64,000 nt of DNA from Nibribacter ruber (GTDB lineage Bacteria > Bacteroidota > Bacteroidia > Cytophagales > Hymenobacteraceae), in assembly GCF_009913235.1 (NCBI RefSeq), contig NZ_CP047897.1, positions 2,789,001 through 2,853,000 on the forward strand, given 5' to 3'. The translations under genes and the position numbers were made by a program. The notes beneath the pieces were generated by a model. The model made no database searches. It was not told where the DNA came from and saw only the letters and a program-made list of their open reading frames with translations. Positions 3,323 through 61,380 of this stretch are shown here, piece by piece (the first letter of the stretch is position 1; every line of letters begins with the position of its first letter).

Positions 3323-3360
3323 GTTTTTAGTCTATTTTACAGAAAACAGGCCAAAAACGG
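3323..3360. repeat. 38-bp palindromic element, copy 1
   Basis: Left arm GTTTTTAGTCTATTTTAC and right arm GAAAACAGGCCAAAAACGG, with a few unpaired positions. It begins 5 nt after the stop of the 2245-3318 gene. Confidence 0.8.
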
Positions 3361-3369
3361 AATTATCTT

Positions 3370-3479
3370 CTCGCTCGCCTCCGGCGAGTGTGAGTAACAC
3401 GTGGCGTCTCGTCGCATTACGGGCTACCTAGTATCGGCCAGAGGCCGGAGGTAACTCACACTCGCCGGAGGCGAGCGAG
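3370..3479. repeat. Long inverted repeat, 29-bp arms around a 52-bp centre
   Basis: The left arm (3370-3398) starts CTCGCTCGCCTCCGGCGAG. The right arm (3451-3479) is its reverse complement, ending CTCGCCGGAGGCGAGCGAG, with 28 of 29 positions matching. The outer part of each arm is itself palindromic. The unit has no coding content and looks like a non-autonomous mobile or MITE-like insertion between two genes; that identity is inference. Confidence 0.75.
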
Positions 3480-3543
3480 TGGGATGCTTACCCCTAGTTT
3501 GCGTTTCTTACATACCTCTGGCACTGCCCTGTTTTCCTCATTC

Positions 3544-3582
3544 TTGTTTTTGGCTTGTTTTCAGAAAAACACACCAAAAACA
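3544..3582. repeat. 38-bp palindromic element, copy 2 (degenerate)
   Basis: TTGTTTTTGGCTTGTTTTC pairs imperfectly with AAAAACACACCAAAAACAG. It lies just upstream of the promoter-like TATCTTTG of the downstream methyltransferase gene. Confidence 0.65.
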
Positions 3583-3589
3583 GAAATGG

Positions 3590-3597
3590 TATCTTTG
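3590..3597 (+). promoter_or_regulatory. -7 promoter box TATCTTTG for the RsmF-like gene
   Basis: Exact match to the Bacteroidota -7 consensus TAnnTTTG, 33 nt upstream of the chosen ATG at 3631. No clear -33 TTG was seen at the usual spacing. Confidence 0.5.
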
Positions 3598-3630
3598 CGG
3601 CAGCCCAGCTCTAGATCTGATTTCATCGCT

Positions 3631-5046
3631 ATGTCTATACAACTTCCGCTTTCCTTTCAGGTGCGCATGCAAACCCAACTGGAAGAGGACTACCCCGCTT
3701 TCAAACAAGCCTTGGCCAGCCCTTCGCCCATCAGCATCCGGGTGAACGCCAACAAGACTTCTCTGCCTACTTCCTTAACACCTGTCCCTTGGACCGAAAC
3801 CGGTTTCTACCTTTCAGAACGACCCAGTTTCACATTGGACCCTATGTTCCATGGCGGGGCGTATTACGTGCAGGAAGCCAGTTCTATGTTTCTGGAGCAG
3901 GCTTTAAAGCAGAGCGTAGATTTAGAAGAGTCTTTGGCGGTGTTGGATTTATGCGGTGCCCCCGGCGGAAAGTCTACCCACATCGCCTCTCTGCTTTCGG
4001 AGGGAAGTTTGCTAGTAGCCAACGAGGTCATCAAACCCAGAGCCAACATCTTGGCAGAGAACATCCAGAAATGGGGAAGCGGAAACGTAGTAGTCACCAA
4101 TAACGACCCCAGCCACATCGGTGCCTTGACCGGTTTCTTTGATGTGATGGTGGTAGACGCGCCCTGCTCCGGCGAAGGTATGTTCCGGAAAGACCCCGAT
4201 GCCATCCAGGAATGGTCTGAGGCTAACGTCAAGCTCTGCTCTGAGCGCCAGCGCCGTATTCTCATGGACGTCTGGGACGCCCTCAAACCCGGCGGAGTCC
4301 TCATTTACAGCACCTGCACCTACAATTCAGAAGAAAACGAAGAAAACCTTGTCTGGCTGTCTACTCAACAGGACGTAGAAACCGTGCCCTTAACCCTGCA
4401 ACCCGAGTGGAACGTCACCGAAACCCAGGAACAAGGCATGCGTGGGTACCGCTTCTACCCGCACAAAACGCAGGGCGAAGGCTTCTTCCTGGCCGTGGTC
4501 CGCAAAACCGAAGGCGACGAGGCCGGTACTTACCGCAAGAGCAAACGCCCTTACTTGGTGTCTGCCTCTAAACAAGAGAAAGCCCTGGTGCAGGACTGGC
4601 TGAGTGAGCCCGGCGATTGGGAAATTGTGAAGCACAAAGAAACACTTCGTGCCCTGCCCAAAGCCTGGATGCTGGAACTAGAGCAACTCTATGAGAACCT
4701 GCGCGTGGTCTACGGCGGTATTGAACTAGCCGAGGTCATGAAAAACAATGCCAAGCCCCTGCCCGCCCTCGCCTTGTCCCAACATCTATCTGCAGGCGCT
4801 TTCCCTCGCGCCGAAGTAGACCTGGCCACCGCCCTCAAATTCCTCCACCGCGAAGACGTGGTGCTGGAAGACTCGGCCACCGGCTGGGTATTGGTTCAAT
4901 TTAACGGCGTTCCACTGGGTTGGGGAAAGAAACTGCAGAACCGCGTCAACAACCATTACCCCAAGGAGTGGCGCATCAGGATGAGCTTGGATGAGGTGCT
5001 GAAACCGGAGAATCTGGAGAAGCAGTTTGTTTTATCCAATCAGTAG
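3631..5046 (+). CDS. rsmF: RsmF/YebU-type rRNA (cytosine-C5) methyltransferase
   Basis: This 471-residue NOL1/NOP2/Sun-family enzyme transfers a methyl group from SAM to C5 of an rRNA cytosine. SAM-binding DLCGAPGGKS is at residues 106-115. The two catalytic cysteines sit in PCSGEG (Cys179) and STCTY (Cys229). The C-terminal part (from FYPHKTQGEGFF on) matches the RsmF-type RNA-binding extension. ATG 3631 was chosen because the family starts there and because the longer frame runs through a palindromic element and the promoter box. The precise rRNA position cannot be read from sequence. Confidence 0.9.
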   Translation: MSIQLPLSFQVRMQTQLEEDYPAFKQALASPSPISIRVNANKTSLPTSLTPVPWTETGFYLSERPSFTLDPMFHGGAYYVQEASSMFLEQALKQSVDLEESLAVLDLCGAPGGKSTHIASLLSEGSLLVANEVIKPRANILAENIQKWGSGNVVVTNNDPSHIGALTGFFDVMVVDAPCSGEGMFRKDPDAIQEWSEANVKLCSERQRRILMDVWDALKPGGVLIYSTCTYNSEENEENLVWLSTQQDVETVPLTLQPEWNVTETQEQGMRGYRFYPHKTQGEGFFLAVVRKTEGDEAGTYRKSKRPYLVSASKQEKALVQDWLSEPGDWEIVKHKETLRALPKAWMLELEQLYENLRVVYGGIELAEVMKNNAKPLPALALSQHLSAGAFPRAEVDLATALKFLHREDVVLEDSATGWVLVQFNGVPLGWGKKLQNRVNNHYPKEWRIRMSLDEVLKPENLEKQFVLSNQ

Positions 5047-5079
5047 GGTCAACAAATTAGATGGGACTTTCCTTAAGAT

Positions 5080-5118
5080 GCGTTTTTAGCCTATTTTGGA
5101 GAAAGTAGGCTAAAAACG
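5080..5118. repeat. 38-bp palindromic element, copy 3
   Basis: GCGTTTTTAGCCTATTTT pairs with a right arm ending GGCTAAAAACGC, 33 nt after the rsmF-like stop. The A-T pair in TTAGCC/GGCTAA replaces the G-C pair of other copies on both arms. Confidence 0.85.
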
Positions 5119-5171
5119 CCAGAAGTGATAGTTGCATTCATCACATCTTCCAAGCTCTTTTATTCCCATTC

Positions 5172-5984
5172 ATGAGAAAACCACTTTACTTAAGCCTTCT
5201 TCTGCTCCTAATTGGTTGTGGTGACAAAGCGAAAAAGGAGCAAGCCACCGTCACGGTTAAACCGGAAGAAAAAGTAGTAGAAACCCAAGCAATACCCTCA
5301 TCAGTACCAGACTCCTTACTTGGCTATTATATCAATACTCTTTATGTAAATAGTCTACAGAAAACAAAGTCAACTAAAGCATCTCAATATGTATCTCCGC
5401 TTTCTATGGTGAAGATATTCAAAGACAGGGCTTCTGTCAAGTTGGAAACAGCTTGGAATTTTCATGAGGGCGGCGCAGATGGCATTCTCACCATGGTGGC
5501 AGGCAGCTCCTTTCAAGTGACGGGAACTGACGGAAATCATATGTTTTATCTGAGTTTAACTAAAGGCGGCGGAATCATTTTAAAAGCAGGGACAAACGAA
5601 TATAAACTAGCCAAGTGCCCACCCGAATCCGCAGACTATGAACAGGCAGGGGATTTGACGGTTAACTCAACGTTGTTTGCTGGAGACTACTGGTTGGGCA
5701 AGAAAACGGTGAGCCTTACAAAGGAGGGAAAGATAACCGGCATTGATAGTTTATCTTCTTTTGTGGTGGCCACAGATTACATGGACGTAGGAATGTCTTT
5801 TGACAAAATTTACTTTAAAGTGAAAGGCAAAAAGCATTTAGGGTGGGGAGATGAATATGGATATGAATTCAGAGGGGACACACTGAATATATACAGAGTT
5901 GTCTGCTTAGACAAAGACAACGACCCAACCTCTTGTGAAGAAGATGCGAAGGGACCTGTTGCTTTTTCACTTGTAAGAAAATAA
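5172..5984 (+). CDS. Lipoprotein of unknown function
   Basis: The 270-residue product has a signal peptide with lipobox LIGC, followed by a charged, Lys/Glu-rich linker. The mature domain has features of a beta-rich fold (repeated GDYW-, LSGK-like strands) and a Cys pair near the C-terminus (VVCLDKDNDPTSCEED). I recognise no family. The gene is visibly more AT-rich than its methyltransferase neighbours, which could reflect acquisition or relaxed selection. It is convergent with rlmI and separated from it by a strong palindromic terminator. Confidence 0.75.
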   Translation: MRKPLYLSLLLLLIGCGDKAKKEQATVTVKPEEKVVETQAIPSSVPDSLLGYYINTLYVNSLQKTKSTKASQYVSPLSMVKIFKDRASVKLETAWNFHEGGADGILTMVAGSSFQVTGTDGNHMFYLSLTKGGGIILKAGTNEYKLAKCPPESADYEQAGDLTVNSTLFAGDYWLGKKTVSLTKEGKITGIDSLSSFVVATDYMDVGMSFDKIYFKVKGKKHLGWGDEYGYEFRGDTLNIYRVVCLDKDNDPTSCEEDAKGPVAFSLVRK

Positions 5985-5994
5985 ACAACTGATG

Positions 5995-6034
5995 GAAACA
6001 CCCCTCTTCGCTCCCCTCAAGGGGAGAATCTGCG
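5995..6034. repeat. Dispersed repeat B (CCCCTC...CTCAAGGGG), copy 1
   Basis: ACACCCCTCTTCGCTCCCCT followed by CAAGGGGAGAATCTGCG. The same block recurs at 43216-43257 and, inverted and split, at 59433-59510. Confidence 0.75.
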
Positions 6035-6061
6035 CTTAGTCCAAGCCTAAGGTATTTCAAT

Positions 6062-6101
6062 CCGTTTTTGGCCTCATTTTCAGAAAATAGCTCAAAAACG
6101 G
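6062..6101. repeat. 38-bp palindromic element, copy 4
   Basis: CCGTTTTTGGCCTCATTTTC pairs with AAAATAGCTCAAAAACGG with small mismatches. Its right end overlaps the first bases of the 46-bp perfect palindrome that follows. Confidence 0.8.
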
Positions 6102-6141
6102 AAAGCCCTAGCAGTGCATGCACTGCTAGGGCTTTCCGTTT
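6096..6141. terminator. 46-bp perfect palindrome, probable bidirectional terminator
   Basis: Perfect self-complementary sequence centred between 6118 and 6119 (TGCATGCA centre; arms AAACGGAAAGCCCTAGCAG and its complement). It lies between the convergent genes ending at 5984 and 6188, and each strand ends its stem in TTT. Confidence 0.7.
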
Positions 6142-6155
6142 AAATCAACTCTAAT

Positions 6156-6184
6156 CTTGCTACCTGATACGTGCTACTTGATAC
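6156..6184. repeat. Degenerate short tandem tract (GCTACCTGATAC / GCTACTTGATAC)
   Basis: Two imperfect copies of a CTTGCTACYTGATAC-like unit, directly abutting the end of rlmI. The same unit occurs at 22420-22445 and inverted at 22318-22347. Confidence 0.6.
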
Positions 6185-6187
6185 TAA

Positions 6188-7375
6188 TTATTCTACATAC
6201 AGCACCAAACCCTTCAGATACTCACCTTCTGGGTGGAAGATGCTGATGGGGTGGTCTGCGGGTTGGGAGAGGTGATGCATGACTTTGACGTTACGGCCGG
6301 CTTCAATGGCGGCGGCCATGACGGTGCTCTGGAACAGGTATTTGTCTACTACGCCGGAGCAGGAGAAAGTGAAGATGATACCGCCCGGCTTGATTTTCTC
6401 AATGGCTTCGGCATTCAGGCGCTTGTAGCCCATGAGCGCGTTGTGGCGTACTTTTTGGCTCTTGGCAAAGGCTGGTGGGTCCAGCACAATCACATCATAG
6501 AAGTCTTCCCGGCCTTTCATGAAATCAAAGGTGTCCATCGCGAACGCTTCGTGGCGGTCCTGGCCGTTGTTCAGTTCGGCGTTCTGCTCGGTGAGTACGA
6601 TGGCTTTTTTGGAAACGTCCACAGAATGCACGGCTTCGGCGCCAGCGTTGAGGGCATAGATGGAGAAACCGCCGGTATAGCAAAAGGTATTAAGGACGGT
6701 CTTGCCTTTGGAGTAATGGGCCAACAATTCGCGGTTTTCGCGCTGGTCAATGAAGAAGCCTGTTTTCTGGCCGGTCACCCAGTCCACCAAGAACTTGTTG
6801 CCATTCTCGGTGACCACGTGCGGGGTAGCAGTTTCACCAATCAGGTAGCCGTTCTGACCTTGCTCGGTGCCTTTTCCTGGTAACGTCTCGGCGCTCTTGT
6901 CATACACAGCCGTCAGTTTGCCGTCATAGACTTCTACTAGGGCCTTTGCAATATCATGACGCACGTGGAACATGCCCACATTGTGCGCCTGCAACACGGC
7001 GGTGTTACCGTACACATCAATGATGAGGCCCGGCAAGCTGTCCCCTTCGGCGAATACCAAGCGGTACACATCTGTATCTGGGGTGTCCAGGAAACCTTGC
7101 TCGCGACGGTAATCCACGGCGCGCTGTACCCGGCTTTTCCAGAAGGCGTAGTCTATTTCTATCTCTTGAAAAGAGAAAATGCGCACGGCAATAGAACCCG
7201 GCTGATAATGGCCAATGCCCAGAAACTCGCGACGGTGGGTGTACACAGCCACAATGTCGCCTTCCTGTACATCGCCCTCAATCTTCTTGATGGCCCCCGA
7301 GAAAACCCACGGGTGGAAACGCTTTAAGGAATGCTCTTTGCCGTTATGCAGTAAAATAGAAGGTAAGGACGTCAT
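6188..7375 (-). CDS. rlmI: RlmI-like class I rRNA methyltransferase
   Basis: About 395 residues. The protein has an N-terminal PUA RNA-binding domain (LKRFHPWVFSGAI...GDIVAVYTHRREFLGIG) followed by a Rossmann methyltransferase (VLNTFCYTGGFSIYALNAGA; VLDPPAFAKSQ; FTFSCSG). This is the architecture of RlmI, the 23S rRNA m5C1962 methyltransferase, with the catalytic Cys in the FSCSG segment. ATG 7375 gives MTSLPSILLHNG; the longer open frame upstream runs through a degenerate palindromic element. It is divergent from the M19 peptidase gene. Confidence 0.88.
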   Translation of the reverse strand: MTSLPSILLHNGKEHSLKRFHPWVFSGAIKKIEGDVQEGDIVAVYTHRREFLGIGHYQPGSIAVRIFSFQEIEIDYAFWKSRVQRAVDYRREQGFLDTPDTDVYRLVFAEGDSLPGLIIDVYGNTAVLQAHNVGMFHVRHDIAKALVEVYDGKLTAVYDKSAETLPGKGTEQGQNGYLIGETATPHVVTENGNKFLVDWVTGQKTGFFIDQRENRELLAHYSKGKTVLNTFCYTGGFSIYALNAGAEAVHSVDVSKKAIVLTEQNAELNNGQDRHEAFAMDTFDFMKGREDFYDVIVLDPPAFAKSQKVRHNALMGYKRLNAEAIEKIKPGGIIFTFSCSGVVDKYLFQSTVMAAAIEAGRNVKVMHHLSQPADHPISIFHPEGEYLKGLVLYVE

Positions 7376-7407
7376 AAGAATATAAAGAAAGGCAGTTTGG
7401 AGTACCG

Positions 7408-7450
7408 CCGTTTTTGACTTGTTTTTGCAAAATTCGGCAAAAAATACGGC
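7408..7450. repeat. 38-bp palindromic element, copy 5 (degenerate)
   Basis: CCGTTTTTGACTTGTTTTTG and a right arm GGCAAAAAATACGG. This is one of the few copies between divergent genes, so it does not sit at a 3' end. Confidence 0.6.
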
Positions 7451-7533
7451 ATTGTTGTGCATTGCCCACTACGTTGCGCGTAAACTGCCTTGAAACGCCT
7501 ATTCTCATTCTCTCAATCACTCATTCACTCATT

Positions 7534-8520
7534 ATGAAAAGGCCCATCATTGACCTGCACTGCGACCTGACCGGCTACCTAGCTTGGATAGAAGGATCCA
7601 CCGCCCTAGACGAAGACATTATTGGCTGTGCCATTCCGCATTTGAAAGCGGGCAAGGTGCGTTTGCAGACCATGGCCTTCTTCACACCCACTGAGCCGGG
7701 CAGCTCTGCGTTTACCTTAAAGCAAGCGCATCTTTTCAAGGAAGTGTTGTTAGCAGAGCGTGATGTTTTCACCTTGGTTAGGCCTGAAGAACTGGAGAAA
7801 CAAGTCTTGCAGGAAGACAAAATCGCCATGGTGTCTGCCATTGAAAACGCCTCAGGCTTATGTGACGAAGGCGAGCCTTTGGCCAACACTTTCACCCGTC
7901 TGGAGGAAATCACAGAACTGGCTGGGCCGTTGCTGTACATTGGGCTTACCCACGCAGATGAGAATCGGTTCGCGGGAGGCAACTTCACCCCGGGCATCGG
8001 CCTGAAGCCAGACGGCGAGGAACTGTTGCGGTACCTCAGCGGAAAACGGATAGCCGTGGATTTGGCACATACCTCAGACGCTTCAGCATATGACTTATTC
8101 AATTTCATAGAAAAGCACTCTCTGGACATTCCCATCATTGCTAGTCATTCTAACTTCAGAAGCGTCTATGACAACCCTAGAAACCTGCCCAATGAGCTAG
8201 TACAGGAAGTAGTGCGCAGAGACGGCTTGATAGGTATAAATTTCTTGAAGAAGTTTGTGCACCCAGACAGGCCCGAGGCATTGCTGGAGCATATTCTGTA
8301 CGGATTGGAGAAGGCACCGCAGGCGCTGGCATTTGGGGCGGACTTCTTTCAAGAATCCGGCATCATGGAGGGCGGGGAGTCTTACTTTCATCCAGAGCAC
8401 AGAAACGCCACCAAGTACCAGAGCGTCTTGCAGGGGTTGGAAGGACAAGTGTCAGAGAAAGAATTAGAAGCCATCAGTTATGGAAACGCGCTTAGGTTTA
8501 TGCAGAGGCTGTGGCTCTAG
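7534..8520 (+). CDS. Membrane dipeptidase family protein (peptidase M19)
   Basis: 328 residues. The start MKRPIIDLHCDL contains the zinc-binding HxD of the M19 (renal dipeptidase) family. Further family landmarks are an internal Glu region (VSAIENASG), GLTHADEN, IAVDLAHTSD and IASHSN, which carry the other metal-binding and structural residues. These enzymes hydrolyse dipeptides including D-residue-containing ones. No signal peptide is seen, so it is probably cytoplasmic. ATG 7534 follows a short CACTCATT tandem tract. The exact substrate is unknown. Confidence 0.88.
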   Translation: MKRPIIDLHCDLTGYLAWIEGSTALDEDIIGCAIPHLKAGKVRLQTMAFFTPTEPGSSAFTLKQAHLFKEVLLAERDVFTLVRPEELEKQVLQEDKIAMVSAIENASGLCDEGEPLANTFTRLEEITELAGPLLYIGLTHADENRFAGGNFTPGIGLKPDGEELLRYLSGKRIAVDLAHTSDASAYDLFNFIEKHSLDIPIIASHSNFRSVYDNPRNLPNELVQEVVRRDGLIGINFLKKFVHPDRPEALLEHILYGLEKAPQALAFGADFFQESGIMEGGESYFHPEHRNATKYQSVLQGLEGQVSEKELEAISYGNALRFMQRLWL

Positions 8521-8619
8521 GGAAGGCGATAAACAAAAAGCCAAGCTTGGGAGAATGAAAGCACATCTTAAATTCACTATATTTAAGAAACTATTCTTCT
8601 ATCCAATATTTTATAGTAC

Positions 8620-11334: not shown

Positions 11335-11339
11335 AGATT

Positions 11340-11379
11340 CGCGTTTTTGGCCGGTTTTCCGTAAAACAAGCTAAAAACG
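11340..11379. repeat. 38-bp palindromic element, copy 6
   Basis: CGCGTTTTTGGCCGGTTTTC against AAAACAAGCTAAAAACG, 6 nt after the plug-protein stop and upstream of the prfA promoter box. Confidence 0.8.
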
Positions 11380-15649: not shown

Positions 15650-15688
15650 CGTTTTTGGGCTATTTCCCATAAAACAGGCCAAAAACGC
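15650..15688. repeat. 38-bp palindromic element, copy 10, fills a convergent gap
   Basis: CGTTTTTGGGCTATTTCCC with TAAAACAGGCCAAAAACG. It occupies nearly the whole 44-nt gap between two convergent stop codons (15644 and 15689). Confidence 0.85.
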
Positions 15689-19149: not shown

Positions 19150-19189
19150 CCGTTTTTGGCCTGTTTTCTGGAAAACAGGCCAAAAACGG
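19150..19189. repeat. 38-bp palindromic element, copy 11 (perfect)
   Basis: CCGTTTTTGGCCTGTTTTC and its exact complement with a 2-nt centre. This copy is close to the family consensus. It lies between gpmI and the downstream lipoprotein gene. Confidence 0.93.
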
Positions 19190-23407: not shown

Positions 23408-23454
23408 ATACCCGTTTTTAGCCTGTTTTCCAGAAAACAGGCTAAAAACGGGTA
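23408..23454. repeat. 38-bp palindromic element, copy 12 (perfect, extended stem)
   Basis: TACCCGTTTTTAGCCTGTTTT pairs with AAAACAGGCTAAAAACGGGTA around a 5-nt centre. The stem extends past the core by GTA-specific flanks. Confidence 0.93.
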
Positions 23455-25351: not shown

Positions 25352-25389
25352 CGTTTTTAGCCTCTTTTCAGGAAATCAGGCTAAAAACG
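25352..25389. repeat. 38-bp palindromic element, copy 13
   Basis: CGTTTTTAGCCTCTTTTC with GGAAATCAGGCTAAAAACG, 2 nt after the ZIP stop; one arm has a small bulge. Confidence 0.85.
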
Positions 25390-28409: not shown

Positions 28410-28469
28410 ATAAACCCGGTCGTTTTTGGCCTGTTTCCTAGAAAACAAGCCAAAAACGACCGGGTTTAT
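28410..28469. repeat. 38-bp palindromic element, copy 14 (stem extended to ~28 bp)
   Basis: The core CGTTTTTGGCCTGTTTCC / AAAACAAGCCAAAAACG is enlarged by copy-specific complementary flanks ATAAACCCGGT and ACCGGGTTTAT. It lies 30 nt after a stop between convergent genes. Confidence 0.92.
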
Positions 28470-30308: not shown

Positions 30309-30353
30309 TTCCGTTTTTGGGCTGTTTTACCCAAAACAGCCCAAAAACGGAAA
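30309..30353. repeat. 38-bp palindromic element, copy 15 (perfect)
   Basis: TTCCGTTTTTGGGCTGTTTT pairs with AAAACAGCCCAAAAACGGAA around ACCC. It begins about 3-6 nt after the metalloprotease stop. The GGGC/GCCC inner pair differs from GGCC/GGCC of other copies but remains matched. Confidence 0.93.
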
Positions 30354-32756: not shown

Positions 32757-32794
32757 CGTTTTTTGCTTATTTTCCAGAAAACTGGCCAAAAACG
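32757..32794. repeat. 38-bp palindromic element, copy 16
   Basis: CGTTTTTTGCTTATTTTCC with GAAAACTGGCCAAAAACG, 3 nt after the YCII-protein stop on the minus strand. Confidence 0.82.
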
Positions 32795-40050: not shown

Positions 40051-40099
40051 AAAACGGAAGCGCCTTCCCGAAACAGTATCGGGGAGGCGCTTCCGTTTT
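40051..40099. terminator. Hairpin joined to a palindromic element
   Basis: 14-bp perfect stem AAAACGGAAGCGCC (40051-40064) / GGCGCTTCCGTTTT (40086-40099). Its 3' arm ends in the T-run that is the left arm of the next palindromic element. Confidence 0.6.
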
Positions 40100-40132
40100 T
40101 GGCGTATTTTGGCCAAAAGAGACTAAAAACGA
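40093..40132. repeat. 38-bp palindromic element, copy 20 (degenerate)
   Basis: CCGTTTTTGGCGTATTTTG with a right arm CAAAAGAGACTAAAAACG, 3 nt after the TonB-receptor stop on the minus strand. Confidence 0.7.
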
Positions 40133-48890: not shown

Positions 48891-48930
48891 CCGTTTTTGG
48901 CTCATTTCCCAGAAAACAGACCAAAAACGA
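48891..48930. repeat. 38-bp palindromic element, copy 24
   Basis: CCGTTTTTGGCTCATTTCCC with AGAAAACAGACCAAAAACG, in the divergent region between DoxX and the 49065 operon. Confidence 0.72.
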
Positions 48931-52259: not shown

Positions 52260-52324
52260 ATCAGCGTTGCTGTAAAAACAAAAGAGGCTCTTTACGCCTC
52301 TTTTGTTTTTACAGCAACGCTGAT
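52260..52324. terminator. Bidirectional terminator with a 29-bp perfect stem
   Basis: The left arm starts at the stop codon (ATCAGCGTTGCTGTAAAAAC...) and pairs perfectly over 29 bp with the right arm at 52296-52324 around a 7-nt loop. It lies exactly between two convergent stop codons. Confidence 0.85.
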
Positions 52325-52326
52325 TT

Positions 52327-53927: not shown

Positions 53928-53998
53928 GGATATGTGATTTAGAGATTTCTCTCTTTTGTGACCCTAAAAGGATTTAATGAGCGAACTAAACAAATGGC

Positions 53999-54445: not shown

Positions 54446-54454
54446 CTGCTTTTA

Positions 54455-54489
54455 CGGCTTGCTCACAAGGTCCTTTCAGGATGACAAGT
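54455..54489. repeat. Dispersed repeat C, copy 2
   Basis: CGGCTTGCTCACAAGGTCCT followed by TTCAGGATGACAAGT, matching 13666-13696 across about 25 nt. Confidence 0.6.
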
Positions 54490-54529
54490 TGTATGTGCGT
54501 GTACAGCAGAAGTAGTTGCAAAGAAAACC

Positions 54530-54958: not shown

Positions 54959-55023
54959 AGTGTTTGGTCAATAAGGTCTTTGAAAAAGCGGAAATGGATT
55001 TGGTCTCTGATGGTTATTAATGC

Positions 55024-55965
55024 TTACCATTCAGCACAAAACTTTTTTTTGGCGGCTAAGAACTCCTGCCACATCTCTTGCACAATCTCCCCAGCGGGCT
55101 GAATGCGGTTAACTATGGCGGCAGCCTGACCAATCTCCAGTTCGCCTTCTTCCAGGTCACCTTCGTACATGCCGCGTTTGGCACGTCTGGAGCCTAGCAG
55201 TTCTGCTAGTTCCTGGGTGCTGGCACCTCTAGACTCGGCTAATTTTACGTCTTGGTAGAACTTGTTCTTGAGGAGGCGTACTGGCGTAAGTTGCTTCAAG
55301 GACAGTTCTGTGTCTCCTTCTTGAGCGGCTACCACGCGGTCTTTAAAGCTCTGGTGCGCACTGGATTCAATACTGGCTACAAATCGGCTTCCCACTTGTG
55401 CCCCATCAGCACCTAAAGCGAATGCGCCAAAAATGCCGGCGCCGTTGGCAATTCCGCCGGCAGCAATCAACGGCAAGTTCACTGCGGCGCGCACCATTGG
55501 AATAAGACAGAAGGTAGTGGTTTCCTCGCGGCCATTATGCCCACCGGCCTCGAAGCCTTCAGCCACGATAGCATCTACGCCGGCCTCTTCACATTTCTTC
55601 GCAAATTTGACGTTGCTCACCACGTGGATGACTTTGGCACCGTTATCCTGCAGAATCTTAGTCCAAGTCTTCGGGTTACCAGCAGAGGTCACCACCACCT
55701 GTACTTTCTCTTCCATGATGATCTGGAAATGATGCTCCAGGTCTGGGTACAGCAAAGGCACGTTCACGCCAAACGGTTTATCTGTAGCGGCTTTACATTT
55801 CTGGATGTGCTCACGCAGAATGTCTGGGTACATAGAGCCCGCGCCAATCAGACCCAGTCCACCGGCATTACTCACGGCACTGGCCAGTTCCCAGCCACTG
55901 CACCAAATCATGCCTGCTTGTACAATAGGGTATTCTATGTTAAGGAGTTCTGTAATTCTGTTCAT
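55024..55965 (-). CDS. FMN-dependent nitronate monooxygenase / FabK-like oxidoreductase
   Basis: 313 residues. TIM-barrel FMN protein: IVQAGMIWCSGWELASAVSNAGGLGLIGAG at the start, PFGVNVPLLYPD, the GFEAGGHNG flavin-site motif with its His, PLIAAGGIANGAGI and ADGAQVGSRF. The family includes nitronate monooxygenase and the enoyl-ACP reductase FabK, which cannot be separated by eye. ATG 55965 gives MNRITELLNIEYPIVQAGM. An imperfect tandem-repeat tract lies just upstream. Confidence 0.85.
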   Translation of the reverse strand: MNRITELLNIEYPIVQAGMIWCSGWELASAVSNAGGLGLIGAGSMYPDILREHIQKCKAATDKPFGVNVPLLYPDLEHHFQIIMEEKVQVVVTSAGNPKTWTKILQDNGAKVIHVVSNVKFAKKCEEAGVDAIVAEGFEAGGHNGREETTTFCLIPMVRAAVNLPLIAAGGIANGAGIFGAFALGADGAQVGSRFVASIESSAHQSFKDRVVAAQEGDTELSLKQLTPVRLLKNKFYQDVKLAESRGASTQELAELLGSRRAKRGMYEGDLEEGELEIGQAAAIVNRIQPAGEIVQEMWQEFLAAKKKFCAEW

Positions 55966-55973
55966 TTTAATGG

Positions 55974-56060
55974 ATGTTAGATGCTAGATGTTAGACACTA
56001 GACTATGAAACAAAATAAGTCTAAAATCTAATGTCTAACTACTAGCGTCTTTCTAACTGC
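55974..56060. repeat. Degenerate tandem tract in inverted arrangement (TTAGATGCTAGATGTTAGAC / GTCTAAAATCTAATGTCTAA)
   Basis: Imperfect TAGATGT/TTAGAC repeats on one side face the complementary GTCTAA/TCTAAC repeats on the other, so the tract can fold on itself. It separates two unrelated minus-strand genes. Confidence 0.6.
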
Positions 56061-57051
56061 TAAAATCTATCTCAGTGCTGTCACCAATATTCAACCGCTG
56101 GCTTTGGCCTTTAAGCGCCGAGTCTGAGCCTACCAGTGATTCTTGCAAAACAGCGTAGGCTAGTTCTGAGTACCCGCCTATGATGGAGTCGCGCACGATG
56201 GTGTAGTTGAGGATGGCCCGCTCACCAATGGCCACATTGGGCCCAATGATGGAGTTACTGATTTGCGCGTCCTTTCCAATGCTCACCGGCGGAATGATGA
56301 TGGTGTTCGGGAATTCTGGGTAGTCTGTGTGCTTGAACTCTGGACGGTTGAGAAGCGTGGCATTGGCGTGCAGGAGGGTTTCTTTTCTTCCGCAATCAAA
56401 CCAGTTGTCCACATCAAAGGTGAGCATGGGTTCGCCGTTCTGGATCATGTGCATGAGCGCATCCGTGAGGTGGTACTCGTTCTGGGTGCGTATGTCCTGG
56501 GCAATAATGTATTCCAGCGCCTCGGCCAGGCCTCTGGGGTTGTTGATTTTGTAGAGACCTACCAAGGCTAGATTGGACTTCGGGATTTTAGGCTTTTCTA
56601 CCACCTTGGTGATGTAGGCGTCCTGGCCTACTTCTGTGATGCCGAACATGGTGGGCACTTTCACTTTTTTGACGGCCAGCACGGTTTGGTCAGAGGCCAG
56701 GATGGCTTCCATGTTCACGTCCACAATGGTATCGCCTAACTGGATGAGCACTTCTTTTTCGTTCCGGAAGGTCTCACGCGCCGTCCACAGGGCGTGGCCC
56801 AGCCCCTCGCGGGGCTGTTGTACCACAAACTCCATCTGCAGGTCTGGGTATTTCTTCTGCACATAGTGCATGATCTTCTCGCCCAGGTAGCCCACCACCA
56901 ACACAAATTGGGTAATGCCTGCGGCCTGTAATCGTTCAATAATATGGCCTAGTATGGCCTTGCCTGCAATGGGTACTAAAGACTTGGGTTGGGTATGCGT
57001 ATGTGGCCTGAGACGCGCGCCCATGCCTGCCACTGGTATAATTGCCTTCAT
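56053..57051 (-). CDS. Sugar-phosphate nucleotidyltransferase
   Basis: 332 residues. The nucleotide-binding N-terminus is AIIPVAGMGARLRPHTHTQPKSLVPIAGK, a GT-A fold; the catalytic region has LIQLGDTIVDV and VVEKPKIPKSNLALVGLY, and DVDNWFDCGRKETLLHAN. The C-terminal ~90 residues form a left-handed beta-helix (IIIPPVSIGKDAQISNSIIG...), as in glucose-1-phosphate thymidylyltransferase and related enzymes. It probably makes an NDP-sugar for surface polysaccharides. ATG 57051 gives MKAIIPVAG. Confidence 0.88.
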   Translation of the reverse strand: MKAIIPVAGMGARLRPHTHTQPKSLVPIAGKAILGHIIERLQAAGITQFVLVVGYLGEKIMHYVQKKYPDLQMEFVVQQPREGLGHALWTARETFRNEKEVLIQLGDTIVDVNMEAILASDQTVLAVKKVKVPTMFGITEVGQDAYITKVVEKPKIPKSNLALVGLYKINNPRGLAEALEYIIAQDIRTQNEYHLTDALMHMIQNGEPMLTFDVDNWFDCGRKETLLHANATLLNRPEFKHTDYPEFPNTIIIPPVSIGKDAQISNSIIGPNVAIGERAILNYTIVRDSIIGGYSELAYAVLQESLVGSDSALKGQSQRLNIGDSTEIDFSS

Positions 57052-57178
57052 AGAAACCTCTCCTTGAACAGCTAAAATAACGAATTTGTGATAGGGATGA
57101 TGCTTTTCTGAAAGAGCAGAGAGAGAACCGGCGCAAAACAAGGGCCAAGTCTCCCTGAGCGGCTCTTCCTCTTGCCTC

Positions 57179-57216
57179 CGTTTTTTGCCTCCTTTCCGGA
57201 AAATAGCCCAAAAACG
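57179..57216. repeat. 38-bp palindromic element, copy 25
   Basis: CCGTTTTTTGCCTCCTTTCC with GGAAAATAGCCCAAAAACG, in a divergent region with no stop codon nearby. Confidence 0.7.
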
Positions 57217-57321
57217 TATATTTTTATGGGATTGTGCGTATGAGAAGTACCCGAACCGAAAACGTGCGGTAAATACGGTAAAAGAACTATATTACACGCT
57301 GGATAAAACTACCCTACAACT

Positions 57322-57900
57322 ATGAAAAAATTATTGCTTTACTTCTTCGGACTGGTGGTCTTGGTGTCGCAGTCTTCTTGCGGATACAATGAGATGGTCA
57401 CCCTAGACGAGCAGGTATCTGGCCAGTGGGGACAGGTACAAAACGCCTACCAACGCCGCGCCGATCTTATTCCTAACCTGGTGAACACTGTGAAAGGTGC
57501 CGCCAACTTTGAGAAATCAACGCTAGAGGCCGTGATTAACGCCCGCGCCAAAGCCACCAGCATCAACTTGAACGCAGATGACCTCACGCCAGAGAACATA
57601 GCCAAATACCAGGAGGCCCAAAGCCAGTTGAGCGGTTCTTTGTCTAGGTTGATGGCCACCGTAGAAGCCTATCCAGACCTGAAAGCCAACCAGAACTTCC
57701 TGGAGCTACAAGCTCAGTTGGAAGGCACGGAGAACCGCATCTCTGTGGAGCGCAACAAGTTCAACCAGACGGTGCAGCAGTACAACACCTACATCAGGTC
57801 GTTCCCGCGCAACATCTACGCCGGCTGGTTTGACTTTGAGAAGAAAGGCTACTTTGAGGCCGAAGCCGGTGCTCAGAAAGCCCCAACCGTACAGTTCTAA
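57322..57900 (+). CDS. lemA: LemA family protein
   Basis: 192 residues. The N-terminal segment ends SQSSC, a lipobox-like start, followed by the LemA helical bundle (GQVQNAYQRRADLIPNLVNTVKGAA, ALVG-type helices, and the signature NRISVERNKFNQTVQQYNTYIRSFPRN). LemA proteins are envelope proteins of unclear role. The two downstream genes encode TPM-domain proteins, a common partner arrangement in Bacteroidota. Confidence 0.92.
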   Translation: MKKLLLYFFGLVVLVSQSSCGYNEMVTLDEQVSGQWGQVQNAYQRRADLIPNLVNTVKGAANFEKSTLEAVINARAKATSINLNADDLTPENIAKYQEAQSQLSGSLSRLMATVEAYPDLKANQNFLELQAQLEGTENRISVERNKFNQTVQQYNTYIRSFPRNIYAGWFDFEKKGYFEAEAGAQKAPTVQF

Positions 57901-57903
57901 AAT

Positions 57904-57936
57904 AGACGCAAGATGTAAGACGCAAGACGTAAGACT
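57904..57936. repeat. Degenerate tandem tract (AGACGCAAGATGTAAGACGC)
   Basis: Imperfect repeats of the unit AGACGYAAG directly after the lemA stop. Confidence 0.55.
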
Positions 57937-57975
57937 GCTTCAAGTCTCCTTGTCTGTGCTTGCCTAAACCACCTT

Positions 57976-58016
57976 ATCGTTTTTGGCCTGTTTTACCCAA
58001 AACAGGCCAAAAACGC
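57976..58016. repeat. 38-bp palindromic element, copy 26 (perfect core)
   Basis: CGTTTTTGGCCTGTTTT and AAAACAGGCCAAAAACG around ACCC, between lemA and the first TPM gene. Confidence 0.92.
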
Positions 58017-58028
58017 ATATTCTATAAT

Positions 58029-58063
58029 TGACTCGAGACTCACGACTCAGAACTCAAGACTCA
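58029..58063. repeat. Degenerate tandem tract (GACTCGAGACTCACGACTCA)
   Basis: Five imperfect GACTCRMRA-like units ending 6 nt before the start of the next gene. Confidence 0.6.
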
Positions 58064-58068
58064 TAAAA

Positions 58069-58530
58069 ATGCCGCGCGATATCATTACCCCAGCAGACGA
58101 GGCCGCCCTTGTAGCGGCCATTGAGGAAGCCGAGCGCAACACCTCTGGCGAAATACGCGTGCATTTTGAAAATACATGCGAGATTAACGTGCTGGACCGG
58201 GCCGCTCAGGTGTTTGCCGAACTGCATATGCACGAGACCAAGCTGCGCAATGGCGTGCTGTTCTATGTGGCTCTCCGAAGCCACAAATTTGCCGTGCTGG
58301 GCGATGGCGGCATCAACGCGGTGGTACCCGCCAATTTCTGGGAAGACATCACCCAGCAGGTCATCCAAGACTTTAAGCAAGAAAAATACGCCGAGGGCCT
58401 GGCCAAAGGCATAAGACTGGCCGGCGAGCAGCTCAAAAGCTATTTCCCGTACGCTGGCGCGCACAAAGACGTGAACGAGTTGTCAGACAGCATCTCGTTC
58501 GGAACCCCTAAAGAAGACCCTTCCGCATGA
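58069..58530 (+). CDS. TPM domain-containing protein, short form
   Basis: 153 residues, cytoplasmic or membrane-peripheral (no signal peptide). The TPM/TLP18.3 pattern is ITPADEAALVAAIEEAERNTSGEIRVHFENT, NGVLFYVALRSHKFAVLGDGGINAVVP, and DFKQEKYAEGLAKGIRLAGE. It overlaps the next gene by the ATGA tetranucleotide at 58527-58530, indicating translational coupling. Confidence 0.88.
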   Translation: MPRDIITPADEAALVAAIEEAERNTSGEIRVHFENTCEINVLDRAAQVFAELHMHETKLRNGVLFYVALRSHKFAVLGDGGINAVVPANFWEDITQQVIQDFKQEKYAEGLAKGIRLAGEQLKSYFPYAGAHKDVNELSDSISFGTPKEDPSA

Positions 58531-59324
58531 AAAAACACATCTGGCTTCTAGGGCTGCTTTTTTTATACTCGTTTGCCATCTTTGCCCAGGTGCAGGACAA
58601 AGATTTTCCGCCCAGGCCCACACCACCCAGACTGGTCAATGACTTGGCAGATATTCTGAGTCCGCAGGAAGAGGCGGCACTGGAGCAGAAGCTGGTTGCC
58701 TACAGTGACAGTACCTCTACCCAGATTGCCATTGTCAACATCACCTCCATTGGCCCTTATGACATCTCTGACTATGCCTTCAGGCTAGGCGAACAGTGGG
58801 GCATTGGCGGGAAAGAGGATGACAACGGTATTCTCATTTTAACCGCCGTCAACGAGCGCAAGGTGTACATTGCCACTGGTTACGGTATGGAAGGCGTTTT
58901 GCCAGACGCCATCGCCAAACGCATTACAGAAGGTACATTAAAGCCCAATTACCAACAGCAGCAGTTTTACCAGGGCTTAGACCAGGCCACCACGCAAATC
59001 ATTACCCGCGCGGCCGGTGAGTATAAGGCAGATCCCAAACAACGACAGGGAGAAGGCGAAGGTGGCGGCTCCAGCATCTGGGTGATCCTGTTCATCCTAT
59101 TGATTATCTTCTTGATCAGTCGCAGAGGCGGCGGTGGCAAAGGCGGCCGGCGCGGAATGCGTGGCATGGGCGGACCTTTCATTCCGCCTATCATCTTCGG
59201 AGACTTCTCCGGCGGACGCGGCGTCTTCGGTGGCGGCGGCGGTGGCTTTGGAGGAGGAGGCGGTGGTTTCGGCGGCTTCGGGGGCGGTAGCTTCGGAGGT
59301 GGCGGCGCCGGTTCTGATTGGTAG
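58527..59324 (+). CDS. TPM domain protein with Gly-rich C-terminus
   Basis: 265 residues. A signal peptide (LLGLLFLYSFAIFAQ) precedes a TPM domain (RLVNDLADILSPQEEAALEQKL, STQIAIVNITSIGPYDISDYA, GILILTAVNERKVYIATGYG). A membrane helix follows (IWVILFILLIIFLIS) and the C-terminus is very rich in Gly, with GGGFGGGGGGFGG repeats, typical of Psb32/TLP18.3-like proteins. Together with lemA and the short TPM gene it forms an envelope-maintenance operon of unknown function. Confidence 0.9.
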   Translation: MKKHIWLLGLLFLYSFAIFAQVQDKDFPPRPTPPRLVNDLADILSPQEEAALEQKLVAYSDSTSTQIAIVNITSIGPYDISDYAFRLGEQWGIGGKEDDNGILILTAVNERKVYIATGYGMEGVLPDAIAKRITEGTLKPNYQQQQFYQGLDQATTQIITRAAGEYKADPKQRQGEGEGGGSSIWVILFILLIIFLISRRGGGGKGGRRGMRGMGGPFIPPIIFGDFSGGRGVFGGGGGGFGGGGGGFGGFGGGSFGGGGAGSDW

Positions 59325-59356
59325 CAGGAAGCTTTCGCTTTGTAGAAATTATGAAG

Positions 59357-59401
59357 AAGCGTTTTTGGCTTGTTTTCTCGGAAACTGGCCAAAAACGCTT
59401 T
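59357..59401. repeat. 38-bp palindromic element, copy 27 (extended)
   Basis: AAGCGTTTTTGGCTTGTTTTC with GGAAACTGGCCAAAAACGCTT, 32 nt after the TPM gene. Confidence 0.82.
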
Positions 59402-59432
59402 TCTGTTTCCCATCGTGACTAGCGCAACTCAA

Positions 59433-59510
59433 CGCAGATTCTCCCCTTGAGGATTACCCAAACGAGAGTTTGAGGTAGCGAGCGTAGCTCAGTAGAGGGG
59501 TGTTTACACC
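59433..59510. repeat. Dispersed repeat B, copy 3, inverted and split
   Basis: CGCAGATTCTCCCCTTGAGG (59433-59452) and GAGCGTAGCTCAGTAGAGGG (59480-59499) plus GTGTTTACACC are the two halves of repeat B in reverse, separated by 27 nt that the other copies lack. Confidence 0.65.
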
Positions 59511-59994
59511 AACTGGTCAATACCGCGCGCCGTTGTTGGTGTTCTCACCAACGACCTAACATGGCCTCTACCTCCCAGCTCTGCCATTCTCAACCATCTT
59601 CTTCCTTACTTTCTACCCGGGTTTGTCACTTTTCTCCTTGATGAGAAAAGTAACCAAAAGAATCAAGAGCCCCCGAACTCGCTGACCGCTCAGACAGGGC
59701 GGGGCTCATTAAGGTGCACCGTGAGAAGTGATTTGCTCCATAGCCAGCTTACGCCACTGCCAATGGATAAGCCATTACTTTCTCCCTCGTGAAAAGAGAC
59801 TTAAATTGACCAGTCTCTTTTCCCTCGGTCAAGGGCGGGCGGACTGCGGTGGGAGACGTTGCAATGCCTGCATCGCCTTGAAGGCGGGAGACAAGGCGGT
59901 GCCGTTGCCTCTACGATTCTATCCTAACGCATCTGCCGCTACTCAAAAGACCTCGTAGCGTCCGGCAGGACCTGCGAGTGTCTGCGACAATATC
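59511..59994. other. Gene-free, repeat-rich stretch
   Basis: It contains hairpin pairs ACTTTTCTC / GAGAAAAGT (59628-59651) and GAAAAGAGACT / AGTCTCTTTTC (59791-59822). The TTTTCTC...GAGAAAAGTAACC string is a type often seen between genes in Bacteroidota. No gene can be supported. Confidence 0.55.
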
Positions 59995-60032
59995 CCTTTT
60001 TGGCATATTCTCCAGAAAACAGGAAAAAAACA
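59995..60032. repeat. 38-bp palindromic element, copy 28 (degenerate)
   Basis: CCCTTTTTGGCATATTCTCC with AGAAAACAGGAAAAAAAC, directly beyond the fbaA terminator. Confidence 0.55.
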
Positions 60033-60060
60033 AAAAGCCGGCCCTAAAGGACCGGCTTTC
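60023..60060 (-). terminator. Intrinsic terminator of fbaA
   Basis: On the minus strand the stem AAAGCCGG / CCGGCTTT (loop with inner CC/GG pairing) is followed by a long T-rich tract (TTTTTGTTTTTTT). It lies 45 nt after the fbaA stop. Confidence 0.85.
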
Positions 60061-60104
60061 CATTTGTTCATATGCACCAAAATAGCACATCAACATATAT
60101 AAAA

Positions 60105-61172
60105 CTATGCGTTGCGATTGATGCAATTTAGGTCTTCAAAGGCTTCTTTCAAGCGGGTGATGAAGGCCTCTTCGCCTTTGCGCAACCAAACGCGTGGGTC
60201 GTAGTGCTTTTTGTTCGGGCTGTCTTCGCCGTCTGGGTTGCCAATTTGGCCTTGCAGATAGTCGCGCTTGCTCTCGTAGTAGTTCTTCACGCCGTCCCAG
60301 AATGCCCATTGCATGTCTGTGTCAATGTTCATTTTGATGGCACCGTACTCAATGGCTTCTCTGATTTTCTCTTTCTCTGAGCCAGAACCGCCATGGAACA
60401 CGAAGTCAACCGGGTTAGGGCCTGTGCCTAGTTTCTCCTGGATGTACTCTTGCGAGTTCTTCAAGATTTCTGGACGAAGCTCTACGTTACCAGGCTTATA
60501 CACACCGTGTACGTTACCAAAGGCGGCGGCCACTGTGAAGCGGTTGCTCACTTTGTTCAGCTCAGTATAGGCGTGGGCTACGTGCTCAGGCTGGGTATAC
60601 AAGTGGGCGCTGTCCACATCAGAGTTGTCTACGCCGTCTTCCTCACCGCCGGTCACGCCTAGCTCAATTTCAATGGTCATGCCCAGCTTGTTCATGCGCT
60701 CCAAATACGTCACGCAAGTGCTCACGTTCTCTTCCAATTCTTCTTCAGAAAGGTCTAGCATGTGCGAGCTGAACAATGGCTTGCCATTTTGCTTAAAGTA
60801 TTTCTCACCAGCATCCAGCAAGCCGTCAATCCAAGGAAGGAGTTTGCGGGCGGCGTGGTCTGTGTGCAATACAACCGGCACACCGTAAGCCTCGGCCATT
60901 AGGTGCACGTGCTGAGCGCCCGAGATGGCACCGGCAATGGCGGCGGCCTGTCCGTCGTTGTTCAAGCCTTTTCCGGCGAAGAACTGGGCACCGCCCTGTG
61001 AGAACTGGATGATAACGGGGGAATTCACTGCCTTGGCGGTTTCCAGCACAGCGTTGATGGAGTTGGTGCCAATCACGTTCACGGCTGGCAATGCAAAGTT
61101 ATTGTCGTTTGCGTACTTGAATAGTTCCTGCACTTCGTCGCCGTGCAGAACACCAGATCTAAATTTAGGCAT
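60105..61172 (-). CDS. fbaA: Class II fructose-bisphosphate aldolase
   Basis: 355 residues. It reversibly splits fructose-1,6-bisphosphate in glycolysis and gluconeogenesis with a zinc ion. The metal and substrate motifs are visible: VVLHTDHAARKLLPWIDGLL (catalytic Asp and zinc His), IEIELGVTGGEEDGVDN, AAAFGNVHGVYKPGNVEL, FVFHGGSGSEKEKI and NIDTDMQWAFWDGVKN. ATG 61172 gives MPKFRSGVLHGDEV. A TAGTTTTG box on the same strand (61196-61203) fits its promoter. Confidence 0.96.
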   Translation of the reverse strand: MPKFRSGVLHGDEVQELFKYANDNNFALPAVNVIGTNSINAVLETAKAVNSPVIIQFSQGGAQFFAGKGLNNDGQAAAIAGAISGAQHVHLMAEAYGVPVVLHTDHAARKLLPWIDGLLDAGEKYFKQNGKPLFSSHMLDLSEEELEENVSTCVTYLERMNKLGMTIEIELGVTGGEEDGVDNSDVDSAHLYTQPEHVAHAYTELNKVSNRFTVAAAFGNVHGVYKPGNVELRPEILKNSQEYIQEKLGTGPNPVDFVFHGGSGSEKEKIREAIEYGAIKMNIDTDMQWAFWDGVKNYYESKRDYLQGQIGNPDGEDSPNKKHYDPRVWLRKGEEAFITRLKEAFEDLNCINRNA

Positions 61173-61195
61173 GGGTTGGCTTTTTGGTCTTTGGA

Positions 61196-61203
61196 CAAAA
61201 CTA
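61196..61203 (-). promoter_or_regulatory. -7 promoter box TAGTTTTG for fbaA
   Basis: Exact TAnnTTTG match on the minus strand, 23 nt upstream of the fbaA ATG. No -33 TTG is seen at the usual distance. Confidence 0.45.
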
Positions 61204-61341
61204 ACTAATTATTGCTTAGCTTCTAAGGTTTCCTGTCTTTGGATTTGCGCCTTAAGAAGCAATTGTATTCAAAATAAAGCAGGAAGCCCAACAATTAGAG
61301 AACATCAGCGCACTGCCTACGCTTTTTCATGGGAAAAGGCT

Positions 61342-61380
61342 CAGTTTTTAGCCTCTTTTCTGGAAAACAAGCCGAAAACG
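61342..61380. repeat. 38-bp palindromic element, copy 29
   Basis: CAGTTTTTAGCCTCTTTTC with GGAAAACAAGCCGAAAACG, between the divergent fbaA and SNF2 genes; the rest of this 309-nt gap shows nothing else. Confidence 0.75.

What the first reader, a model, noticed from the sequence alone, without database searches (positions are those of the whole stretch)
3323..61380. A high-copy ~38-bp palindromic element occurs about 29 times in 64 kb, almost only between genes
The consensus is roughly CGTTTTTGGCCTGTTTTC, a 2-4 nt loop, then the complementary arm. Copies are listed individually as features. A density of about one per 2 kb suggests hundreds to over a thousand copies per genome if the window is typical. 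I know of no named family with this sequence. Several copies are perfect palindromes (19150, 23408, 30309, 37504, 46694).
Basis: seen in the sequence. Interest (0 to 1): 0.85.

Follow-up and report, generated by a model that had tools for sequence, protein, structure and literature searches.

The report
Species-dialect palindromes marking Rufibacter gene boundaries
Some 1,600 copies of one 38-base mirror-symmetric DNA sign sit mostly between the genes of this Rufibacter bacterium; in sister species the same places carry the sign in another spelling, so many signs seem to change spelling together, and what reads them is unknown.

Summary
The window (Rufibacter, Bacteroidota) holds 30 copies of a 38-bp dyad: 18-nt arms, 2-nt centre. 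The genome holds 1,636 matches to the symmetric core, reversed control 0; the 16 held genomes of the genus have 627-2,257 each, controls 0-1. Elsewhere 10 of 134 family genomes gave 1-4 hits and 1 of 394 phylum genomes a weak one.

Sites are orthologous: of 189 region-by-relative comparisons occupied here, 177 are occupied in the relative (about 86 expected). Yet species differ in consensus. In a held-out test orthologous copies follow their own species: 18/18, 8/8, 12/12, 20/21, 9/10, 12/15 in six relatives, not a detection artefact.

Arms do not covary in this genome, though they do partly in some relatives. Where a tandem region has one terminator and one element, the terminator comes first in 47 of 57. 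This favours a double-stranded DNA site over an RNA terminator. REP, uptake-sequence and terminator membership tests each failed a defining feature. I propose binding sites at transcription-unit borders for an unidentified symmetric DNA-binding factor. Neither reader nor purpose is identified.

The parts
3322..3359 (.). palindrome copy, tandem intergenic, 3 nt after stop
   Evidence: 51.7 bits, 13/18 paired
3545..3582 (.). palindrome copy, probably upstream of the true start of the RsmF-like gene
   Evidence: 43.3 bits; family matches begin at residue 54 or later
5081..5118 (.). palindrome copy, tandem intergenic
   Evidence: 50.5 bits, 16/18
6063..6100 (.). palindrome copy, convergent intergenic, next to a 23-bp perfect inverted repeat
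   Evidence: 50.5 bits; I5
7409..7446 (.). weak copy inside a predicted gene, possibly chance
   Evidence: 28.3 bits, 10/18
11342..11379 (.). palindrome copy, tandem, 7 nt after stop; orthologous in 7 relatives
   Evidence: 52.6 bits
12570..12607 (.). palindrome copy, tandem
   Evidence: 55.6 bits
13030..13067 (.). palindrome copy, tandem
   Evidence: 53.8 bits
13565..13602 (.). palindrome copy, tandem, degenerate
   Evidence: 33.9 bits, 11/18
15650..15687 (.). palindrome copy filling a convergent intergenic region
   Evidence: 57.3 bits, 5 nt and 1 nt from the two gene ends
19151..19188 (.). perfect consensus palindrome, tandem
   Evidence: 64.9 bits, 18/18
23413..23450 (.). perfect palindrome, tandem; orthologous copies in 9 relatives
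   Evidence: 61.5 bits, 18/18
25352..25389 (.). palindrome copy, tandem, 2 nt after stop; orthologous copies in 9 relatives
   Evidence: 54.7 bits
28421..28458 (.). palindrome copy nested in a longer inverted repeat, convergent
   Evidence: 61.0 bits; I2
30312..30349 (.). palindrome copy, tandem; orthologous copies in 10 relatives
   Evidence: 53.7 bits, 17/18
32757..32794 (.). palindrome copy, tandem
   Evidence: 53.7 bits
36300..36337 (.). palindrome copy, convergent; orthologous copies in 9 relatives
   Evidence: 52.4 bits
36788..36825 (.). copy with a 1-nt centre (shifted by one base in the matrix scan), tandem
   Evidence: 30.0 bits
37504..37541 (.). perfect palindrome, tandem
   Evidence: 56.4 bits, 18/18
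40094..40131 (.). palindrome copy, convergent
   Evidence: 42.0 bits
43138..43175 (.). palindrome copy, divergent
   Evidence: 60.3 bits
43651..43688 (.). palindrome copy, divergent
   Evidence: 42.7 bits
46697..46734 (.). palindrome copy, tandem, 3 nt from the next gene's stop
   Evidence: 55.8 bits, 17/18
48892..48929 (.). palindrome copy, divergent
   Evidence: 51.6 bits
53540..53577 (.). copy inside a predicted gene
   Evidence: 37.7 bits, 13/18
57179..57216 (.). palindrome copy, divergent; orthologous copies in 9 relatives
   Evidence: 52.7 bits
57978..58015 (.). palindrome copy, tandem; orthologous copies in 10 relatives
   Evidence: 56.5 bits
59360..59397 (.). palindrome copy, convergent
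   Evidence: 55.2 bits
59995..60032 (.). degenerate copy beside a terminator-like hairpin, convergent
   Evidence: 32.1 bits, 11/18; flank read
61343..61380 (.). palindrome copy, divergent
   Evidence: 48.2 bits

Best explanation
The palindrome is a double-stranded DNA recognition site, one per about 2.1 kb outside three deserts, placed mostly at the borders between transcription units and read by an unidentified symmetric (dimeric or tetrameric) DNA-binding factor of Rufibacter. Two contacts per arm one helical turn apart (T4-T5 and T15-T16, 11 bp, mirrored) would form the fixed skeleton; the bases between them are the species dialect. Shown: copy number, location, orthology of the sites, different consensus at the same sites in six relatives tested, no arm covariation in this genome, position after the terminator in most tandem regions that have one of each, absence from three islands. 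Inferred: that a protein reads it, that it works as DNA, and that its job is to mark or insulate transcription-unit borders (a roadblock, supercoil boundary or nucleoid anchor).
For: Sites are kept in place: 46 of 46 own-occupied syntenic regions shared with G012, median offset 1 bp; 177 of 189 comparisons over 11 relatives, about 86 expected. Ungapped flanks differ at 0.35-0.55 per base between G000 and G012, while T4-T6 differ at 0.00 and T15-T16 at 0.02-0.04 over 41 pairs. Held-out dialect test on six relatives: their copies are nearer their own dialect in 18/18 G014, 8/8 G003, 12/12 G006, 20/21 G002, 9/10 G013, 12/15 G007; 162-171 of 171 G000-type copies would have passed each relative's detection threshold, so detection does not force this. 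Arm pairing in G000 is not above shuffles (2,321 of 3,024 observed, 2,348 expected). Sense-strand G-U against A-C 315 to 288, p 0.29. Terminator first 47, element first 7, overlapping 3 in tandem regions with exactly one of each. Occupancy outside the deserts: convergent 32 of 39, tandem of at least 150 bp 54 of 72, divergent of at least 150 bp 19 of 39, divergent 60-150 bp 0 of 9. Isolated arms are near background.
Against: No reader protein was found or searched for beyond Y1 transposases. Copies in divergent regions do not fit a marker of gene ends only. In G006, G013, G002 and G007 the free inner positions covary between arms (z 5.0 to 6.2, mostly at positions 6-7), and position 7 covaries in G012 (z 5.9) and G014 (z 2.7). 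Both-arm changes at paired positions exceed expectation between G000 and G012 (39 against 28.3, sd 4.0). A second orientation count gave G-U 266, A-C 217, p 0.029, in the direction expected for RNA. When convergent ends are counted too, the terminator precedes the element 75 times and follows it 33 times. In 289 of 357 element-bearing tandem regions no terminator was recognised, so the element could end transcripts there. Near-identical copies are in excess in the six genomes tested, which also fits copying.
Confidence: 0.5

Rival explanations
1. A self-targeting element: an enzyme copies the palindrome, or one arm at a time, onto existing copies, so a new variant overwrites old ones in place and islands without a copy stay empty.
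For: In 160 kb of G003 four copies at different loci are identical perfect palindromes; canonical arms combine with old arms about as expected for independent units (both 24, one 38, none 25 of 87); identical canonical-arm pairs number 353 against 259 expected, sd 22. Substitutions between G000 and G012 cluster within arms (variance 3.22 against 1.99, sd 0.28, 92 of 96 arms) with no left-right correlation, r 0.04. Near-identical copies are in excess in the six genomes tested.
Against: Arm clustering was not significant against G014, G006 or G002 (p 0.64, 0.10, 0.13). No target duplications. No element with the arms as ends was seen in the regions read; the few isolated arms look, by eye, mostly like indel variants or chance. 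Y1 transposases, the usual REP partner, were not found in G012. Strong and weak half-sites under selection would also give arm-wise clustering.
Confidence: 0.25
2. An RNA-level 3' hairpin: a terminator or mRNA end protector.
For: 34 of 168 copies start within 0-10 nt of a stop; can form a hairpin; arm covariation in four looser-dialect species; G-U excess in one of two counts; no terminator recognised in 289 of 357 element-bearing tandem regions.
Against: An A-tract, not a T-tract, follows the stem. Ordinary terminators co-occur with it at about the expected rate (convergent ends 18 against 16.3; tandem 14 against 9.5), and where a tandem region has one of each the terminator usually comes first (47 to 7). 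No covariation in G000. 19 of 57 divergent regions hold one.
Confidence: 0.1
3. A self-recognition tag such as a DNA uptake sequence with species dialects.
For: Different consensus in different species, about 1,600 copies in this genome, absence from three islands.
Against: Isolated arms are near background (11 against 7 at 12 bits, 6 against 4 at 14, 3 against 0 at 20), whereas uptake sequences are often inside genes (passages of PMC3630211). Natural competence of Rufibacter was not examined.
Confidence: 0.12
4. A dead ancient repeat family decaying in place.
For: Orthologous sites and some degenerate copies.
Against: No change at T4-T6 over 41 pairs while flanks differ at 0.35-0.55; orthologous copies follow species dialects.
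Confidence: 0.03

Closest known systems
Repetitive extragenic palindromes (REP; GTAG and CGTC families)
   Same: Short high-copy intergenic palindromes, mostly between tandem and convergent genes and near 3' ends (PMC3733652: abstract, passages and section 15 seen).
   Different: No unpaired tag at one end, no tie to a RAYT seen, sites conserved across species, different consensus at the same sites.
Neisseriaceae DNA uptake sequence dialects
   Same: Species dialects of a sequence in very high copy (PMC3630211: passages seen).
   Different: Uptake sequences are short sites, also common in genes; here the unit is a 38-bp dyad and arms are rarely alone.
Bidirectional intrinsic terminators
   Same: Palindromes often at gene ends.
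   Different: A-tract instead of T-tract after the stem; ordinary terminators exist separately and mostly precede the element in tandem regions with one of each.

Membership tests
REP (GTAG/CGTC) | unpaired GTAG or CGTC tag at one end | tested here: not met
   Both ends are alike; the base before the C is mainly C or T on both sides, no tetranucleotide tag
REP (GTAG/CGTC) | RAYT gene flanked by two inverted copies | tested here: not met
   Y1_Tnp found in 15 of 16 genomes, not in G012. Of three G000 loci two were scanned: L163 has two copies, both after the gene (ORF 1429-1974), L175 one copy. The third G000 locus and the other genomes' loci were not scanned for copies
REP (GTAG/CGTC) | high copy, extragenic, near 3' ends | tested here: met
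   1,636 core matches; 154 of 168 intergenic; 34 of 168 within 0-10 nt of a stop
DNA uptake sequence | over-represented short site, also within genes | tested here: not met
   Isolated arms near shuffled level
DNA uptake sequence | drives transformation through a receptor (ComP) | not tested
Intrinsic terminator | stem followed by a T-tract | tested here: not met
   Consensus 3' arm ends AAAAACG
Intrinsic terminator | lies at the transcript end | tested here: inconclusive
   After the recognised terminator in 47 of 57 tandem regions with one of each; no terminator recognised in 289 of 357 element-bearing tandem regions
Rfam RNA families | match at gathering score | tested here: not met
   0 matches in the window
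Transposable element or MITE | target site duplication and presence/absence polymorphism | tested here: not met
   Direct flank repeats at expected level; 46 of 46 own-occupied regions shared with G012, 3 occupied only in G012

The most novel reading that the evidence does not exclude
A new kind of chromosome-wide punctuation: a genus-specific dyad at most core transcription-unit borders whose more than a thousand orthologous sites switch dialect together, driven either by a coevolving global DNA-binding protein or by an arm-by-arm overwriting enzyme.
Probability: 0.35. Interest if true: 0.92.

Novelty: new variant of a known kind. Interest (0 to 1): 0.77.

Why it matters
Sites that hold their positions while their sequence changes in step, if the sampled pattern holds for the whole genome, are hard to explain by ordinary selection on single sites.

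Tried and rejected
Intrinsic terminator: disfavoured by co-occurrence and order, with a terminator finder of my own. RNA hairpin under pairing selection: not supported in G000, partly in some relatives; alignment A2 shows strong covariation, but its rows were chosen for pairing, so it is no evidence. REP/RAYT. Uptake sequence. Mobile ends. Phage origin: the exact consensus palindrome of this species occurs in 0 viral contigs; other dialects were not tried there. Limits: outgroup synteny is thin, 5 own-occupied regions in three of four outgroup genomes, 0 with an element. Gene calls come from my own hexamer-based caller. Synteny and dialects were read on parts of genomes only (20 to 453 kb each), and G005, G008, G009 and G011 on about 5 kb each. 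The dialect test was run on six relatives plus G012, not on G001, G004, G010 or G015. The family and phylum scans used a model of Rufibacter dialects, strict filters and 45 or 17 scored candidates a genome, so distant dialects could be missed; two of the ten other family genomes with hits reach E 4e-9 and 7e-10, not followed up. Match counts are capped, so copy numbers come. Model R1 was built from 27 of the 30 window copies.

Papers: seven library searches (open-licence PubMed Central only). I saw listings for all; abstract, passages and section 15 of PMC3733652; passages of PMC3630211, PMC2817692 and PMC2267715.
Full report
Observation. The half-site pattern occurs 46 times in the window with up to 2 mismatches; shuffles give 0.14. 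Scanning for paired arms gives 30 palindromes, 29 with a 2-nt centre. A symmetric weight matrix on 453 kb of the same chromosome gives 167-170 copies at thresholds from 10 to 20 bits and none in one shuffled and one reversed copy, a cleanly separated family. The consensus is CGTTTTTGGCCTGTTTTC-NN-mirror, with T4-T6 and T15-T16 nearly invariant. The whole genome has 735 exact half-arms (0 reversed) and 1,636 full cores with up to 3 mismatches (0 reversed). The window is G000:C1:2789001-2853000 of a 4.35-Mb one-contig genome. The genus is inferred: the three public stretches with the exact palindrome are all Rufibacter.

Distribution. A symmetric core pattern matches 627 to 2,257 times in each of the 16 held genus genomes, controls 0 or 1. 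A covariance model of mixed dialects gives 40-45 matches of 45 scored candidates in all 16, and 1-4 matches in 10 of 134 other family genomes; most of those are weak, two reach E 4e-9 and 7e-10. In the phylum sample 1 of 394 other genomes has a weak match. In 400 kb from four outgroup genomes a pooled matrix finds 11 hits against 12 in shuffled and 6 in reversed sequence, and 0 of 5 own-occupied syntenic regions has one.

Location. Of 168 copies in 453 kb, 154 are intergenic, 13 lie inside called genes and 1 is on an edge; by region of at least 38 bp, 38 of 57 convergent, 81 of 181 tandem and 19 of 57 divergent ones hold a copy. Outside the three longest gaps, taken out after seeing them, occupancy is 32 of 39 convergent regions of at least 60 bp, 54 of 72 tandem regions of at least 150 bp (22 of 60 shorter), 19 of 39 long and 0 of 9 short divergent ones. 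34 of 168 copies start within 10 nt after a stop. The gaps (42, 38 and 20 kb; G+C 0.46, 0.51, 0.39 against 0.50 overall) look like islands: of 64 genes listed there, 16 were scanned, and matches include LmuA/LmuB, SIR2, HerA and MzaC/D/E defence models, a serine recombinase and copper-oxidase and metal-pump-like proteins.

Orthology and dialects. In 464 syntenic region-by-relative comparisons with 11 relatives, 177 are occupied in both, 12 only here, 33 only in the relative and 242 in neither; about 86 shared are expected from occupancy alone. With G012 it is 46 of 46, median offset 1 bp; for the other relatives except G010 (2 copies, 302 bp) the median offset is 5.5 to 18 bp. In the looser-dialect genomes the matrix also gives background hits (G015: 141 hits, 14 and 6 in two shuffles), so their figures are less firm. 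Consensus differs: G000 and G012 CGTTTTTGGCCTGTTTTC, G014 CGTTTT(C)GG(G)CTCATTTC, G003 CGTTTAGGGGCTGTTTTT, others looser. With orthologous copies left out of training, the relatives' copies lie nearer their own matrix than G000's in 18/18 (G014), 8/8 (G003), 12/12 (G006), 20/21 (G002), 9/10 (G013) and 12/15 (G007); G012, which shares the dialect, is not separable (13/49). Copies in relatives were found with the relatives' own matrices, but 162 to 171 of 171 G000-type copies would pass those thresholds, so detection does not create the result. So the same places carry different spellings. Between G000 and G012 flanks differ at 0.35-0.55 per base (ungapped, 41 pairs); T4-T6 do not differ.

DNA or RNA. 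In G000 arms do not covary (2,321 Watson-Crick cells observed, 2,348 expected). On free inner positions z is 5.0 to 6.2 in G006, G013, G002 and G007, 2.9 in G001, and between -1.9 and 1.7 in G000, G012, G014, G003, G004 and G015; the signal is mostly at positions 6-7, and position 7 alone covaries in G012 and G014. Both arms change together more than expected between G000 and G012 (39 against 28.3, sd 4.0). Sense-strand G-U against A-C is 315 to 288, p 0.29, and over free positions 266 to 217, p 0.029. Recognised terminators co-occur with the element at about the expected rate (convergent 18 against 16.3; tandem 14 against 9.5). In tandem regions with exactly one of each the terminator comes first 47 times, the element first 7, overlap 3; counting convergent ends too it is 75 before and 33 after. 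In 289 of 357 element-bearing tandem regions no terminator was recognised. On balance this favours a DNA-level site, without excluding some role of pairing.

Unit of change. Isolated arms are near background, so the dyad is the unit that is kept. The arm may be the unit that changes. In 160 kb of G003, both, one or no arm is canonical in 24, 38 and 25 of 87 copies, close to independence (21.3, 43.5, 22.3); identical canonical-arm pairs number 353 against 259 expected, sd 22; four copies at different loci are identical perfect palindromes. Between G000 and G012, substitutions cluster within arms (92 of 96 arms after dropping 4 with indels; variance 3.22 against 1.99, sd 0.28) but not between the arms of a copy (r 0.04). 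Against G014, G006 and G002 the clustering is not significant (p 0.64, 0.10, 0.13). This fits block overwriting, and also strong and weak half-sites under selection. Near-identical copies exceed column shuffles in the six genomes tested.

Interpretation. The fixed skeleton, two T contacts per arm 11 bp apart and mirrored, is what a symmetric DNA-binding protein could read; the rest is dialect. I commit to a binding site for an unidentified reader, acting at borders between transcription units, at 0.5. The in-step dialect change is the real puzzle. REP, uptake-sequence, intrinsic-terminator, transposon and Rfam membership each failed at least one tested feature.

Noticed in passing
window coordinates -158854..-116597, -109467..-71469 and 199509..219974 (outside the window): Three element-free stretches; the 16 of 64 genes scanned include LmuA/LmuB, SIR2-HerA and Mza defence models, a serine recombinase and copper-resistance-like proteins: likely acquired islands.
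   Followed up: partly
window 3484-5046: The RsmF-like methyltransferase ORF is probably too long at its start; an element lies in the extra stretch.
   Followed up: no
window 28410-28469: This copy is nested in a longer inverted repeat; 9 of 168 copies have at least 6 bp of inverted flank against 0.21 in permuted flanks.
   Followed up: partly
L163:2254-2291: A G000 copy near a Y1 transposase gene is spelled rather like the G014 dialect.
   Followed up: no
window 52260-52324: A 29-bp perfect inverted repeat with 7-nt loop between convergent genes, without an element: probably an ordinary terminator.
   Followed up: no
G096 and G132 (other genus of the family): One or two places match the mixed-dialect model well (E 4e-9 and 7e-10), outside Rufibacter.
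   Followed up: no
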